Shown: piece by piece, positions 49,585 through 54,655 of the stretch
Numbering within the stretch: position 1 is the stretch's first letter
Layout of the letters: each line of letters begins with the position of its first letter
Source: Zobellia galactanivorans
GTDB taxonomy: Bacteria; Bacteroidota; Bacteroidia; Flavobacteriales; Flavobacteriaceae
Reading direction: 5' to 3'
Assembly: GCF_000973105.1 (NCBI RefSeq)
Contig: NC_015844.1
Location: 1,670,501 to 1,734,500, forward strand
DNA: 64,000 nucleotides
Notes under the pieces: model-generated
What the model was told of the DNA's origin: nothing
Seen by the model: only the letters and a program-made list of their open reading frames with translations
Database searches by the model: none
Made by a program: the position numbers and the translations under genes

Positions 49585-50199
49585 TTATTCGGTTTTCGTA
49601 ATTTGAATATCCCCTGTAACGGTAGTAAGCGTATACTTCGTATCCCCAACGGGAATATTATCCCTTTCAACACTACCGTATTTATTAATCACATGGATAT
49701 TCCCGCTTTTCGCGGCAAGCAATATGCTCCCGCTTTGGGTATGCACGTTCACGTTTTCAGAAACGTTTGAAAGCGCACAGCGGCCGTCGTTTAAAGAAAC
49801 GTTCAGATCCGTATAGTCTCCACTCATCAACACGTTACAGCTTGTACCGAACACGGTCACGTATTTGTACTGAGGCAACACCACTTTCAATTCTATTGAA
49901 ACCACTTTATGGGCACTAAGCTTATCGTTAGGATTGTGAAAATTGGGTTGGAACCCACTACTGACCATAATAGAGTTACCCTCTTTTTTTACCGAAACCA
50001 AAAGGTCTTTCATGTACTCCCCGTCTATGGTGGCCTCTACCGACATTTCGGCCCCTGGTGCCGTTTCCACCGCTAATTTGTAGCAATTGGTCACATCAAT
50101 GTTAATTGAGGTGATTTCGCTGTTTACCAATGATTTTCTCACCACCTTTTGGGCCGACAAAAGATGGAAGGACAAAAATAAAAACACGAACAACCTCAT
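49585..50199 (-). CDS. Secreted adhesin-like beta-helix protein (GIN/DUF4097-like)
   Basis: A 204-residue exported protein: signal peptide MRLFVFLFLSFHLLSAQ, then a right-handed beta-rich repeat fold of the putative auto-transporter adhesin kind (DYTDLNVSLNDGRCALSNVS, ENVNVHTQSGSILLAAKSGN, TTVTGDIQITKTE), with short repeats each giving one beta rung. The function is unknown. It is inserted between the DksA-like gene and lspA on the same strand, where flavobacterial genomes often have these two close together. Confidence 0.72.
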   Translation of the reverse strand: MRLFVFLFLSFHLLSAQKVVRKSLVNSEITSINIDVTNCYKLAVETAPGAEMSVEATIDGEYMKDLLVSVKKEGNSIMVSSGFQPNFHNPNDKLSAHKVVSIELKVVLPQYKYVTVFGTSCNVLMSGDYTDLNVSLNDGRCALSNVSENVNVHTQSGSILLAAKSGNIHVINKYGSVERDNIPVGDTKYTLTTVTGDIQITKTE

Positions 50200-50269
50200 A
50201 GGTACAGATATAAAAAAACCCACAAGAATACACTTCTCGTGGGTTCGATAATTTTTACAGAGCAGAAAA

Positions 50270-50653
50270 TTACTTTTGCATGTTCTTCGCCTCGATGCTC
50301 AAAGTAGCATGGGGAACCAACTTCAAACGTTCCTTGGCGATAAGCTTACCGGTAACCCGACAAATGCCGTATGTTTTGTTCTCGATACGCAAAAGCGCAT
50401 TCTTAAGGTCTCTAATAAATTTCTCTTGACGGATGGCCAATTGGGTGTTCGCCTCTTTGCTCATGGTTTCGGACCCTTCTTCAAAAGCCTTAAAGGTAGG
50501 CGAAGTATCGTCCGTACCATTATTACCGTCGTTCATATATGAGCTTTTCAATAACTCCAAGTGACTCTTAGCCTTCTCGATCTTGTCTTCGATCAACTCC
50601 CTGAATTCGGCCAGATCCTTGTCCGAATATCTAACTTTTAAATCTTCTGCCAT
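50270..50653 (-). CDS. DksA/TraR-family protein with a degenerate zinc finger
   Basis: A 127-residue protein matching the DksA/TraR layout: an N-terminal coiled-coil hairpin (about 8-95) that in DksA enters the RNA polymerase secondary channel, and a C-terminal zinc-finger region. In the coiled-coil tip there is an acidic run (NDGNNGTDDTS, about 41-51). The finger reads GICRVTGKLI...PHATLSIEAK, where only Cys98 remains of the four expected Cys, so zinc binding is doubtful. RNA polymerase modulation is inferred from the fold. The ATG at 50653 follows 4 bases after the ileS stop, so it is cotranscribed with ileS. Confidence 0.88.
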   Translation of the reverse strand: MAEDLKVRYSDKDLAEFRELIEDKIEKAKSHLELLKSSYMNDGNNGTDDTSPTFKAFEEGSETMSKEANTQLAIRQEKFIRDLKNALLRIENKTYGICRVTGKLIAKERLKLVPHATLSIEAKNMQK

Positions 50654-50657
50654 TATC

Positions 50658-53600
50658 TTAATGTTTTTCAATAAATAATTTAGTTTTAACTTCATCAAAG
50701 GCAACCTCAGTCCCCCTATCCAAGCTTTCTTCAAAAACAAGTTCGGCAGTCAACGTTTCGGTTTTGATATAACCGAGGTTATTCGATACCGCTTTTTCAA
50801 CAAAACCGTCTTTAAGAATCTTGATATCAATCTTATCGGTCACCTCGAACCCAGAATCTTTTCTCAAGTTCTGAATTCTATTTACAAGCTCTCGAGCTAT
50901 ACCTTCTTCCCTCAAATCTTGATTGATTGTTACGTCCAGCGCTACGGTAAGCGTACCAGAACTTGCAACCAACCAACCTTCGATATCTTGCGAGGCTATC
51001 TCTACATCTTGCAGTTGTAATGTAATAATTTTATCGTCAATGTCAAGCGAAATTTCGCCATTCTGCTCAATTTTTTGGATATCATCTTGACCCAATTGCG
51101 CAACGGCCTGGGCAATTTTCTTCATATCCTTACCGTATTTAGGGCCTAGCACCTTGAAATTCGGCTTAATTTGCTTCACTAAAATGCCCGATGCATCATC
51201 AAGCAATTCTATTTCCTTTACGTTCACCTCCGACATGATCAAATCGGCCACCGCTTCGATCTCGTGCTTTTGATTTTCATCAAGAACAGGTATCATTATC
51301 TTTTGTAAGGGCTGACGGACCTTTATCTTTTCTTTCTGACGGATCGAGAGTACCAAGGACGAAATGGTCTGTGCTTTTTCCATCTTACTTTCTAGGTCCT
51401 TATCTACGACTGCCTCATCATACTTCGGGAATTCGGCCAAATGTACACTTTCAAATGCTTCCTTTTTGGTCGTATTCGTTAAATCTTTGTACAATCGGTC
51501 CATAAAGAAGGGTGCCACGGGTGCCGAAAGTTTGGCTACGGTTTCCAAACAGGTATATAAAGTCTGGTAAGCCGATATCTTATCCTTTTCATAACTTCCT
51601 TTCCAAAAGCGTCTTCTACACAAGCGTACGTACCAGTTGCTCAAATTCTCTTGAACATAATCTGAAATGGCACGTGTAGCCTTGGTAGGCTCGTAATCGG
51701 CATAGGCTTCGTCAACGGTTTTAATCAACGAATGTAGTTCCGATAAGATCCACCGGTCGATTTCAGGTCTTTCGTTCAGCGGAATTTCCGCCTCTGAATA
51801 ATCAAAAGCATCGATATTGGCATAAAGGCCAAAGAACGAATAGGTATTGTAAAGTGTTCCGAAGAATTTGCGCTTCACCTCAACGATACCCTCGGTATCG
51901 AACTTTAAATTATCCCAAGGGTTCGCATTCGAAATCATGTACCAACGTGTAGCATCCGCCCCATGTTCGTTCATGGTATCGAAGGGATCCACGGCATTGC
52001 CCAAGCGCTTTGACATTTTTTTGCCCTCCTTGTCCAACACAAGTCCGTTAGACACTACATTTTTATAGGCTACGGAATCGAAAACCATTGTAGCTATGGC
52101 GTGTAAGGTATAGAACCACCCTCTTGTCTGGTCGACCCCTTCGGCAATAAAGTCGGCAGGATAGGTCTTGCCCTCATCGATCAAGTCTTTGTTTTCAAAT
52201 GGATAATGCCATTGGGCATAAGGCATGGAACCACTATCGAACCAAACATCGATCAGATCACTTTCGCGCTTCATCGGTTTGCCCGAAGTGGAAACCAAAA
52301 CCACCTGATCAACGATATTCTTGTGAAGGTCTATTTTTTCATAGTTTTCGTCAGATAGGTCACCAACCACGAAATCGTCAAAAATATCCTTTTCCATTAC
52401 ACCGGCAGCCACAGCCTTTGCCATTTCCGACTTCAGTTCGGCCACAGATCCAATGATCATTTCCTCTTTTCCGTCTTCGGTCCTCCAAATAGGAAGTGGT
52501 ATACCCCAATACCTAGACCTAGAAAGGTTCCAGTCATTGGCATTCGCCAACCAGTTACCAAAACGGCCTTCCCCGGTAGATTTCGGCTTCCAATTAATGG
52601 TTTGGTTCAAGGCGAACATACGATCCTTCACATCGCTGATCTTAATAAACCATGAATCTAAGGGGTAATATAAAATAGGCTTATCGGTACGCCAGCAGTT
52701 GGGATAACTGTGTACGTACTTCTCCACCTTAAATGCTTTGTTCTCTTCTTTGAGCTTTATGGCAATTTCCACATCGACCGAACGTTCGGGCTCTTCCCCT
52801 GCCGTATAATATTCGTTTTTAACATATTTGCCCCCGAACTCTTTCATTTCAGGACGGAACTTCCCTTGCAAATCTACCAATGGAACCGGATTTTTATTTT
52901 CATCCAATACCAATAGGGGCGGAACTTCGGGCACAGCCTGTTTGGCCACCAAGGCATCATCGGCACCAAAAGTAGGGGCCGTATGTACAATACCGGTACC
53001 GTCTTCCGTAGTTACGAAATCACCGGCAATTACACGAAATGCATTTTCAGGGTTTTGATAAGGAAGGGCATACTCAAGGAGTTGCTCATATCGAATACCC
53101 ACTAAATCTTTACCAACAAATTCCTTTACTACGTAAAAAGGTATTTTCTTATCTCCGGCTTGGTACGCCAACAAATCGGATTTGGCTTCCACTTGCTCGA
53201 ACTTCCCTGAAAACTGCTTCCCTACCAAACTTTTGGCCAGAACTACGTTCATGGGCTTAAAAGTGTACTGGTTATAAGTTTCCACCAAAACGTAATCTAT
53301 TTTGGGCCCTACGGTCAACGCGGTGTTCGAAGGCAGTGTCCATGGGGTGGTCGTCCACGCCAAGAAATATACATCACCCTCATTCTGGAGAAAATCGGGC
53401 AGCGATTCTTCTATCGTCTTAAATTGTGCCACTACCGTAGTATCGGTCACATCTTGATATGTACCCGGTTGGTTAAGCTCATGCGAACTTAAGCCCGTAC
53501 CCGCCTTAGGTGAATACGGCTGTATCGTGTACCCCTTATAGATCAAGCCTTTGTCGTATATCTGCTTCAATAACCACCAAACAGACTCCATATATTTTGG

Positions 53601-54056
53601 CTTGTAGGTAATATATGGGTCGTTCATGTCTACCCAATAGCCTACTTGTTCGGTCATTCGGTTCCACACATCGGTATAGCGCATAACCGCCTTCTTGCAG
53701 GCCGCGTTATATTCTTCTACGGATATTTTTTTACCGATATCCTCCTTGGTTATCCCCAATTCTTTCTCTACACCCAGTTCAATAGGCAATCCGTGTGTAT
53801 CCCAACCGGCCTTACGCTTCACTTGAAAACCCTTCATGGTCTTGTACCTCGGAAAGATATCCTTGATCGTTCGCGCCATGACATGGTGGATCCCTGGCAT
53901 ACCGTTTGCCGACGGCGGACCTTCATAAAAAACATAACTAGGTTTACCCTCCCTAGAGGAAATACTTTTCTCGAAAATCTGGTTTTGCTTCCAATAATCG
54001 AGTATATCTTCAGCTACTTTGGGCAAATCCAATCCTTTATATTCCGCAAACTTCAT
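50658..54056 (-). CDS. ileS: Isoleucine-tRNA ligase (type 2, G-I-H-H signature)
   Basis: Charges tRNA-Ile. The 1132-residue class I enzyme has a Rossmann core split by an editing domain (about 195-390, with TTPWTLPSNTALTVG), a KMSKR loop (around residue 690, DKEGKKMSKRLGNAVDP), an anticodon-binding domain (about 780-930) and a long C-terminal extension. The KMSKR ending and the extension mark the eukaryote-like IleRS2 class. The first signature motif is altered: residues 55-58 read G-I-H-H (GMPGIHHVMART), whereas nearly all class I synthetases have H-x-G-H. A GxHH form has been reported in certain type 2 IleRS that are hyper-resistant to mupirocin; resistance here is predicted, not shown. It heads the ileS / DksA-like / adhesin / lspA run. 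Confidence 0.97.
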   Translation of the reverse strand: MKFAEYKGLDLPKVAEDILDYWKQNQIFEKSISSREGKPSYVFYEGPPSANGMPGIHHVMARTIKDIFPRYKTMKGFQVKRKAGWDTHGLPIELGVEKELGITKEDIGKKISVEEYNAACKKAVMRYTDVWNRMTEQVGYWVDMNDPYITYKPKYMESVWWLLKQIYDKGLIYKGYTIQPYSPKAGTGLSSHELNQPGTYQDVTDTTVVAQFKTIEESLPDFLQNEGDVYFLAWTTTPWTLPSNTALTVGPKIDYVLVETYNQYTFKPMNVVLAKSLVGKQFSGKFEQVEAKSDLLAYQAGDKKIPFYVVKEFVGKDLVGIRYEQLLEYALPYQNPENAFRVIAGDFVTTEDGTGIVHTAPTFGADDALVAKQAVPEVPPLLVLDENKNPVPLVDLQGKFRPEMKEFGGKYVKNEYYTAGEEPERSVDVEIAIKLKEENKAFKVEKYVHSYPNCWRTDKPILYYPLDSWFIKISDVKDRMFALNQTINWKPKSTGEGRFGNWLANANDWNLSRSRYWGIPLPIWRTEDGKEEMIIGSVAELKSEMAKAVAAGVMEKDIFDDFVVGDLSDENYEKIDLHKNIVDQVVLVSTSGKPMKRESDLIDVWFDSGSMPYAQWHYPFENKDLIDEGKTYPADFIAEGVDQTRGWFYTLHAIATMVFDSVAYKNVVSNGLVLDKEGKKMSKRLGNAVDPFDTMNEHGADATRWYMISNANPWDNLKFDTEGIVEVKRKFFGTLYNTYSFFGLYANIDAFDYSEAEIPLNERPEIDRWILSELHSLIKTVDEAYADYEPTKATRAISDYVQENLSNWYVRLCRRRFWKGSYEKDKISAYQTLYTCLETVAKLSAPVAPFFMDRLYKDLTNTTKKEAFESVHLAEFPKYDEAVVDKDLESKMEKAQTISSLVLSIRQKEKIKVRQPLQKIMIPVLDENQKHEIEAVADLIMSEVNVKEIELLDDASGILVKQIKPNFKVLGPKYGKDMKKIAQAVAQLGQDDIQKIEQNGEISLDIDDKIITLQLQDVEIASQDIEGWLVASSGTLTVALDVTINQDLREEGIARELVNRIQNLRKDSGFEVTDKIDIKILKDGFVEKAVSNNLGYIKTETLTAELVFEESLDRGTEVAFDEVKTKLFIEKH

Positions 54057-54247: not shown

Positions 54248-54655
54248 ATGAAAAAAGTAATTTTAAGTTCCGTTTTGATGCTTGCCCTAAGTATCTCTTT
54301 CGTTTCTTGTAGAGACGCCGCAGACAAAGCAAAAAGCGCTACCGACGAAGCTGGTGCCGCAATGGAACAAGCTGGCGAGGATGCCAAAGAAATGGGCACC
54401 GAAGCCATGGAAGACGCCAAAGAAGCTGGTAGCGAAGCTATGGAGCAGGCCGAAGAAGCCGGTGAAGAAATCAAAGCTGGTGCAGAAGATGCCGCCAACG
54501 ACCTAAAATCAAAAGCTGAAGAAGCTGGTGACGACATCAAGGAAAAAGCCAATGAAGCTGCCAGTGATGTTAAAGATGCCGCCAACGATGCTACGGACAA
54601 GGCCAAAGACGCCGCCAACAGTGCTGCTGACAAAGCCAAGGCTGCCGTCAACTAA
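54248..54655 (+). CDS. Amphipathic-repeat (LEA/apolipoprotein-like) lipoprotein
   Basis: A 135-residue lipoprotein: signal peptide with lipobox FVSC (Cys21), then an almost wholly Ala/Glu/Lys/Asp sequence from residue 22 to the end, with repeats of about 11 residues (KDAANDATDKA, KDAANSAADKA, EEAGDDIKEKA). The pattern predicts a long amphipathic helix like late-embryogenesis-abundant or apolipoprotein repeats, or one that is unfolded when free. A membrane-stabilising or stress-protection role is plausible but unproven. It is monocistronic, followed by a strong terminator. The gene is strongly expressed-looking in codon choice (GCC, GAA, AAA), which is an impression only. Confidence 0.88.
   Translation: MKKVILSSVLMLALSISFVSCRDAADKAKSATDEAGAAMEQAGEDAKEMGTEAMEDAKEAGSEAMEQAEEAGEEIKAGAEDAANDLKSKAEEAGDDIKEKANEAASDVKDAANDATDKAKDAANSAADKAKAAVN

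What the first reader, a model, noticed from the sequence alone, without database searches (positions are those of the whole stretch)
53883..53894. Isoleucyl-tRNA synthetase with G-I-H-H in place of the class I H-x-G-H motif
Residues 55-58 of IleRS read G-I-H-H (in GMPGIHHVMA), so the first and third residues of H-x-G-H are swapped. The enzyme also carries KMSKR and a long C-terminal extension, which mark the eukaryote-like IleRS2 class. A GxHH form has been described in a few type 2 IleRS enzymes that resist mupirocin extremely strongly. What I read directly is the motif; the resistance is predicted from that work. It appears to be the sole ileS here, so it would be a housekeeping enzyme rather than a resistance copy.
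Basis: partly seen in the sequence, partly recalled or inferred. Interest (0 to 1): 0.7.

Follow-up and report, generated by a model that had tools for sequence, protein, structure and literature searches.

The report
Phylum-wide swapped IleRS signature motif
This bacterium's only isoleucine tRNA-charging enzyme carries a swapped version (GIHH) of the usual HIGH catalytic motif, a known variant tied elsewhere to extreme mupirocin resistance, which turns out to be the normal form in its phylum and goes along with one further residue on the same helix.

Summary
Residues 55-58 of the 1132-aa IleRS (window 54056..50658, minus strand) read GIHH at 53894..53883. They align without a gap with HVGH/GVHH of solved type 2 IleRS, and no HxGH occurs elsewhere in the protein. 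It is the only ileS found in the one-contig 5.52-Mb genome and sits beside traR/dksA and lspA: a housekeeping gene. The motif is a described variant (Brkic et al. 2023, PMC10485003: G/AXHH in 86 of 163 IleRS2, millimolar mupirocin Ki), not one of "a few" enzymes. A NGxPG(hydrophobic)HH DNA pattern occurs in 392 of 395 drawn genomes of the phylum, 371 of 371 good ones, 170 of 170 genera. KMSKR is not an IleRS2 marker. Resistance of this enzyme is inferred, not shown. A further result: among the positions scanned, only residue 61 (four after the third motif residue, same helix) follows the motif. Thr there occurs in 38 of 45 canonical IleRS2 and 0 of 339 G/AXHH, and appears with loss of the third His in about five lineages. 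I found no mention of this coupling; few independent events and possible short-tract recombination limit it. Ordinary for its phylum, with one testable new detail.

The parts
50658..54056 (-). ileS, type 2 isoleucyl-tRNA synthetase, 1132 aa
   Evidence: ORF; TIGR00392 ileS 1005 bits, cut-off 621; AlphaFold model pLDDT 90.0, best four PDB matches are P. megaterium IleRS2
53883..53894 (-). G-I-H-H, residues 55-58, in place of H-x-G-H
   Evidence: codons read; aligned to GVHH/HVGH of solved IleRS2
53874..53876 (-). residue Ala61, i+4 from the third motif residue on one helix (model helix 56-74); the one other scanned position that follows the motif
   Evidence: column scan and trees; helix from model
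52194..52208 (-). HYPFE, residues 617-621, eukaryote-like/IleRS2 signature
   Evidence: signature described in PMC4861432 (passage)
52005..52019 (-). KMSKR loop, residues 680-684
50664..51245 (-). C-terminal DUF5915 (PF19302) region, residues 938-1131
   Evidence: Pfam 9.1e-60
50270..50650 (-). TraR/DksA-type zinc finger protein, downstream neighbour (start not settled)
   Evidence: PF01258; same order ileS-traR-lspA in Riemerella L083
48906..49673 (-). lspA, signal peptidase II (ORF start probably further in)
   Evidence: PF01252

Best explanation
This is the single housekeeping type 2 IleRS of a Bacteroidota (flavobacterial) genome, carrying the naturally swapped class I signature motif G-x-H-H that is the normal form in this phylum. 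The third-position His (His57) most likely does the work of the missing first His in stabilising the activation step, which the displaced tip of helix alpha1 in IleRS2 allows; the same His would clash with mupirocin, so the enzyme should be hyper-resistant (Ki in the millimolar range). The small residue Ala61, one helical turn further on, is part of the arrangement: a Thr there was seen only with a non-His third residue. Shown here: motif, register, sole copy, near-universal presence in the phylum draw, the residue-61 association. Inferred from Brkic et al. 2023: catalytic substitution by the third His and hyper-resistance. Inferred here: that residue 61 gates the motif form.
For: GIHH confirmed and no HxGH elsewhere. 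Register against solved IleRS2 and IleRS2-first fold matches. TIGR00392 over cut-off once in G000; the other matches lie in ORFs of 902, 983 and 704 aa, taken to be ValRS, LeuRS and MetRS. ileS-traR-lspA order as in Riemerella. NGxPG(hydrophobic)HH in 392 of 395 phylum genomes; the three misses G291, G338, G354 are 81-88% complete and have weak best IleRS matches (E 7.5e-98, 9.4e-15, 1.7e-20). 70 of 70 distinct Bacteroidota IleRS read are GxHH (16 of the loci behind them were located through motif-pattern hits, so this count is not independent). PMC10485003 (parts 1-3 of 7 and Discussion read, other passages by find): ALHH DrIleRS2 Ki 6.6 mM, falling 823-fold on change to HVGH; the opposite change raised Ki from 0.20 to 35 uM (T. 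thermophilus) and 1.08 to 460 uM (P. megaterium); in the GVHH P. megaterium structure the third His takes the place of the first. Thr61 in 0 of 339 G/AXHH and 38 of 45 HXGH IleRS2.
Against: No kinetics, MIC or structure of this enzyme, and none of a Bacteroidota IleRS came up in my searches. Introducing GVHH into P. megaterium and T. thermophilus IleRS2 cost up to 10-fold in kcat or KM, so equivalence of His57 is not certain. The residue-61 link rests on about five events, two of them single sequences, and is not significant by a strict independent-pairs test.
Confidence: 0.92

Rival explanations
1. The gene is an acquired mupirocin-resistance copy (mupA-like) beside or replacing a normal ileS.
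For: IleRS2 genes do move: 142 of 182 plasmid records matched are Staphylococcus, those listed being annotated mupA (60 of 182 listed).
Against: Sole ileS, neighbourhood shared with Riemerella, presence across the phylum; the listed mupA genes are about 37% identical.
Confidence: 0.02
2. The motif is not kept for mupirocin at all: GxHH is simply the inherited (perhaps ancestral) IleRS2 state, and HxGH inside IleRS2 is a set of reversions.
For: On my FastTree tree parsimony puts one change at the base of IleRS2 and four or five later losses of the third His; on the 83-row tree 6 changes in all. Presence throughout a phylum of many habitats does not look like drug-driven selection (inference).
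Against: Brkic et al. reconstruct HXGH at the root of the major IleRS2 clade and at least two gains of GXHH. My set has no archaeal or eukaryotic IleRS, few HXGH phyla, and long branches, so the root state is not settled here.
Confidence: 0.4
3. The residue-61 association comes from transfer of a short DNA tract carrying HxGH and Thr together, not from structural coupling.
For: The two sites are four codons apart. In L157 and L217 residues 54-61 are nearer to Bacillota HXGH enzymes than to their own clade (mean 0.87 against 0.48 and 0.50), which both explanations predict; but residues 62-91 are also somewhat nearer to Bacillota on average (0.72 against 0.62; 0.73 against 0.66), which leaves room for a longer tract.
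Against: Further out the own clade is as near or nearer in L217 (160-199: 0.78 against 0.64) and the two are about equal in L157 (100-129: 0.57 against 0.54; 120-159: 0.54 against 0.58), and residues just after 61 (VFK, VYK) are not the Bacillota ones shown. The AU test rejects one clade of these two with Bacillota HXGH for the rest of the protein (p 2.9e-5), which shows separate enzymes but not separate motif origins. L360 has Thr61 with a different motif (TIAH), and the HYGH group with a different context.
Confidence: 0.3

Closest known systems
G/AXHH type 2 IleRS (D. radiodurans ALHH, S. griseus; Brkic et al. 2023, PMC10485003)
   Same: IleRS2 with first and third signature residues swapped; GIHH in the same register
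   Different: No kinetic data here; the paper's main text does not name Bacteroidota (0 occurrences of 'bacteroid'; figures and supplements not seen); it reports no single residue accompanying the swap in the text I read
P. megaterium IleRS2 (8c8u, 8c8v, 8c8w, 8c9d)
   Same: 38% identity and the best structural matches; its engineered GVHH form (8c8w) models this motif
   Different: Natural motif is HVGH; residue equivalent to 61 is Gly; a second IleRS beside IleRS1 in that organism
T. thermophilus IleRS2 (1ile)
   Same: 40% identity in the structure search; IleRS2
   Different: HVGH, said by Brkic et al. to be a natural reversion; residue equivalent to 61 is Ala
MupA/MupB plasmid IleRS
   Same: Type 2 IleRS; models matched at 731 and 760 bits
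   Different: Far below their own cut-off of 1900 bits; an extra copy on plasmids; their motif was not read here

Membership tests
Isoleucyl-tRNA synthetase (TIGR00392) | Score over curated cut-off | tested here: met
   1005.1 bits against 621.4
Type 2 (eukaryote-like) IleRS | Clusters with IleRS2, not IleRS1 | tested here: met
   IQ-TREE quick tree places it in a set of 21 Bacteroidota, Gemmatimonadota and Bacillota IleRS2 (SH-aLRT 99), away from B. velezensis and E. coli IleRS1; FastTree agrees
Type 2 (eukaryote-like) IleRS | HYPFE present, NKIL signature absent (PMC4861432, passages) | tested here: met
   HYPFE at 617; motif followed by VMAR, not xxNKIL
   Present here, but not a marker: 30 of 70 Bacteroidota IleRS2 have KMSKS
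G/AXHH IleRS2 of Brkic et al. 2023 | Gly/Ala first, hydrophobic second, His third and fourth, in register with HXGH | tested here: met
   GIHH, residues 55-58
G/AXHH IleRS2 of Brkic et al. 2023 | Mupirocin Ki in the millimolar range with near-normal activity | not testable with these tools
   needs purified enzyme
Acquired mupirocin-resistance IleRS (MupA/MupB) | Score over cut-off; additional to a chromosomal ileS | tested here: not met
   731 and 760 bits against 1900; sole ileS

The most novel reading that the evidence does not exclude
Residue 61 (i+4 from the third motif residue on helix alpha1; by my count Asn70 of P. megaterium IleRS1, a mupirocin contact) is the gate that decides which form of the class I signature motif an IleRS can carry. 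His at the third motif position excludes a Thr at 61; when the third His is lost, Thr appears. This would help explain why the two canonical IleRS2 known to tolerate the swap in vitro (Gly and Ala at this site) do so. A single IleRS from a Poribacteria-phylum genome (L360, TIAH/Thr) suggests that a third form of the motif exists. (Probability lowered from 0.5 after re-reading.)
Probability: 0.45. Interest if true: 0.5.

Novelty: new member of a known kind. Interest (0 to 1): 0.33.

Why it matters
It corrects the picture from 'odd enzyme of one genome' to 'normal housekeeping form of a phylum', so Bacteroidota as a group are predicted to be insensitive to mupirocin at the target, which would bear on selective media and on the use of mupirocin to induce the stringent response in them (inference). 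The residue-61 association offers a simple, checkable partner residue where published mutagenesis of the surroundings found 'no simple mechanism' for how IleRS2 remodels its active site.

Tried and rejected
Rejected: second ileS; an HxGH elsewhere; frameshift or misread start (one open frame of 1132 aa; nearest relatives of about the same length); mupA-like acquisition. First pattern GKPGIHHV was too narrow: it found 109 of 395 and missed the window itself; replaced. Literature searches for mupirocin susceptibility of Bacteroidota (listings only) gave nothing decisive: a P. gingivalis ppGpp paper uses mupirocin with E. faecalis as control, and its legend does not settle whether P. gingivalis was also given it (PMC6994654, two passages); a Flavobacterium spartansii genome paper lists predicted mupirocin resistance without a test (PMC5714932, one passage). 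find_trnas: no tRNA in the window. The branch-placement test is lenient because it ignores uncertainty of the tree; the strict independent-pairs test has 4 supported pairs, of which 2 or 3 (mean 2.8) go the same way and 0 the other way, and cannot reach 0.05. Nine of 398 rows were dropped before the tree (L120, L145, L146, L156, L159, L167, L340, L407, L414: motif missing, cut or misaligned). The tree used 83 rows of 398 chosen by me. Rows fetched were chosen by me from listings, so counts of GxHH and HxGH rows are not frequencies. Microbacterium L086 is in four pieces and was not read through.

Full report
Observation. The minus-strand ORF 54056..50658 encodes 1132 residues. Residues 51-62 read N-G-M-P-G-I-H-H-V-M-A-R, with codons GGG ATC CAC CAT for 55-58, window 53894..53883. 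The protein is ileS by TIGR00392 (1005 bits, cut-off 621), has the class I catalytic domain, anticodon domain and DUF5915 C-terminus, HYPFE at 617 and KMSKR at 680, and no H-x-G-H anywhere. phmmer aligns it with P. megaterium IleRS2 and T. thermophilus IleRS2 without a gap across the motif, GIHH over GVHH or HVGH. An AlphaFold model (mean pLDDT 90.0) has a helix 56-74 starting in the motif; its best PDB matches are the four P. megaterium IleRS2 entries (E 8.5e-101 to 2.3e-96), with yeast, Candida and T. thermophilus IleRS2 next and IleRS1 entries weaker (best 3.9e-60).

Copy number and setting. In the one-contig genome (G000, 5.52 Mb, 100% complete) only this gene passes the ileS cut-off. Other matches are 25-33% identical and lie in ORFs of 902 and 983 aa; one search adds one of 704 aa; I take them to be ValRS, LeuRS and MetRS. 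The gene is followed by a TraR/DksA zinc-finger gene and lspA, the same order as on a Riemerella anatipestifer record, whose ileS is 66.6% identical.

How common is it. Of 395 genomes drawn from the phylum, all 395 have an IleRS match and 392 hold the DNA pattern for N-G-x-P-G-(hydrophobic)-H-H; among genomes at least 90% complete and at most 5% contaminated it is 371 of 371, by genus 170 of 170. The control pattern read backwards hit once; by my count 12 genomes show more than one forward hit, so a few presences could be chance. The three without a match (G291, G338, G354) are 81-88% complete and have weak best IleRS matches. All 70 distinct Bacteroidota IleRS that I read are GIHH (63) or GVHH (7); 16 of the 20 regions were located through motif-pattern hits, so this count is not independent. 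Outside the phylum, a scan that used a domain away from the motif and an actinobacterial first sequence matched 591 stretches and kept the best 80 named loci, of which 72 were readable by a simple rule: 64 GxHH and 8 HxGH. I then drew from Bacillota (158 of 159 genomes with an IleRS match of either type; 52 of 199 at E 1e-145 or better), Chloroflexota (118 of 121), Gemmatimonadota (110 of 111) and the Poribacteria phylum (77 of 84); phylum names are inferred from the named loci that gave the handles. Aligning 398 rows gave 335 GxHH, 4 AxHH, 48 HxGH, 1 TxAH, 1 HxGT (IleRS1-like L406) and 9 cut or misaligned rows. Of the 48 HxGH rows 45 fall inside the IleRS2 part of the tree; the others, with Asn at position 61, I take to be two IleRS1 controls and the window genome's ValRS.

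What is known. Brkic et al. 2023 (PMC10485003; parts 1-3 of 7 and the Discussion read, plus passages) described G/AXHH in 86 of 163 IleRS2 and none in 158 IleRS1, measured 6.6 mM mupirocin Ki for the ALHH D. radiodurans enzyme, an 823-fold fall on changing it to HVGH, and rises from 0.20 to 35 uM and from 1.08 to 460 uM in the opposite exchange; in their GVHH P. megaterium structure the third His can take the role of the first. The main text never names Bacteroidota (0 occurrences of 'bacteroid'). So the kind is known; its near-universal presence in this phylum is, in the text I could search, not spelt out (searches: listings; figures and supplements not seen).

A partner residue. While reading contexts I saw HxGH followed by V-x-T-R but GxHH by V-x-(A/S)-R. 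In the 398-row alignment, residue 61 in 335 GxHH rows is A 214, G 60, S 57, N 4; in 4 AxHH rows A 3, G 1; Thr never (0 of 339). In 45 HxGH IleRS2 it is T 38, G 3, A 2, P 2. A scan over reference positions with at least 200 G/AXHH letters, for a residue that is the majority in all four HXGH lineages of IleRS2 and at most 15% in G/AXHH, returned only positions 55, 57 and 61; with three lineages it also returned 792 and 1026, weakly. Two of the four lineages are single sequences (L157, L217), one has 5 rows, and the Bacillota one was entered with 34 of its 38 rows; the scan looked in one direction only. On a FastTree tree built without columns 44-70, the third His is lost five times and Thr61 gained five times, four on the same branch and the fifth on a nested, poorly supported branch; none of 200,000 random placements by branch length gave four coincidences. 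On an IQ-TREE quick tree of 83 rows the strict test has 4 supported pairs, 2 or 3 going the same way (mean 2.8), 0 the other, and cannot reach significance; L157 lies in no starred set there, and Bacillota HXGH is one side of a branch only at 68. An AU test rejects a single clade of Bacillota HXGH with L157 and L217 (p 2.9e-5) and with L217 alone (p 0.0049), the groups having been named after a tree was seen. Against a pure size rule: Asn occurs with the third His in 4 rows. Against coevolution: a short transferred tract could bring both sites; residues 62-91 of L157 and L217 are on average somewhat nearer to Bacillota HXGH than to their own kin (0.72 against 0.62; 0.73 against 0.66), while further stretches are mixed. 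After re-reading this I raised that rival from 0.25 to 0.3 and lowered the novel case from 0.5 to 0.45. Residues 57 and 61 are i and i+4 of one helix in the model. By alignment, position 61 is the Asn of the IleRS1 NKIL signature (E. coli numbering 71, PMC4861432 passage) and, by my count along the sequence, Asn70 of P. megaterium IleRS1, which Brkic et al. list as a mupirocin contact absent in IleRS2. Both canonical IleRS2 in which they made the swap have a small residue there (Gly in P. megaterium, Ala in T. thermophilus).

Mechanism. Most likely the enzyme is an ordinary, active housekeeping IleRS in which His57 replaces the first His of HxGH in stabilising the activation step, while its bulk at the third position blocks mupirocin. 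The structural part is inferred from the engineered P. megaterium enzyme. Ala61 leaves room one turn below His57; a Thr there was seen only when the third residue is not His. That last step is a hypothesis.

Direction of change. On my sampling parsimony favours GxHH at the base of IleRS2 with later returns to HxGH, opposite to the published reconstruction of HXGH at the root of the major clade. My set lacks archaeal and eukaryotic IleRS, so I do not claim it.

Verdict. Observation confirmed; interpretation partly right; an ordinary, phylum-wide state of a known variant, with a new, modest and testable residue coupling.

Noticed in passing
L360 (G832:C267, Poribacteria-phylum genome): The only IleRS match of that genome reads T-I-A-H in place of HxGH/GxHH, with Thr at position 61, an open frame of 1045 aa and KMSKS but no exact HYPFE; its sister L359 is GVHH/Ser. 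EcTrpRS has TIGN at this place (one passage of PMC10201369), so a Thr in first position has a precedent.
   Followed up: partly
L406 (G817:C24, Gemmatimonadota genome): An IleRS1-like protein (open frame 934 aa) reads H-L-G-T, with the fourth His replaced.
   Followed up: no
L083 (NZ_CP072187.1, 104,567 bp, Riemerella anatipestifer): A record labelled plasmid carries ileS, traR, lspA and lepA; it may be a piece of chromosome or a chromid.
   Followed up: no
G726 (Gemmatimonadota) and G872 (Poribacteria phylum): Two type 2-like IleRS matches each; in G726 one of them (L403) has the HYGH context.
   Followed up: no
window 49585..50223 (-): A 212-aa ORF with a signal-peptide-like start and no Pfam match lies between traR and lspA; in Riemerella L083 these two are adjacent.
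   Followed up: no
Chloroflexota loci such as L254, L265, L274, L298, L306: A deep, distinct IleRS2 group with contexts like GPITANNPMGVHHAWGR also carries GVHH, with Gly or Asn at position 61; it probably corresponds to the 'minor clade' of Brkic et al..
   Followed up: partly
window 54248..54655 (+): Divergent upstream neighbour of ileS: a 135-aa lipoprotein-like, Ala/Glu/Lys-rich protein with weak, below-cut-off apolipoprotein and YtxH similarity.
   Followed up: no
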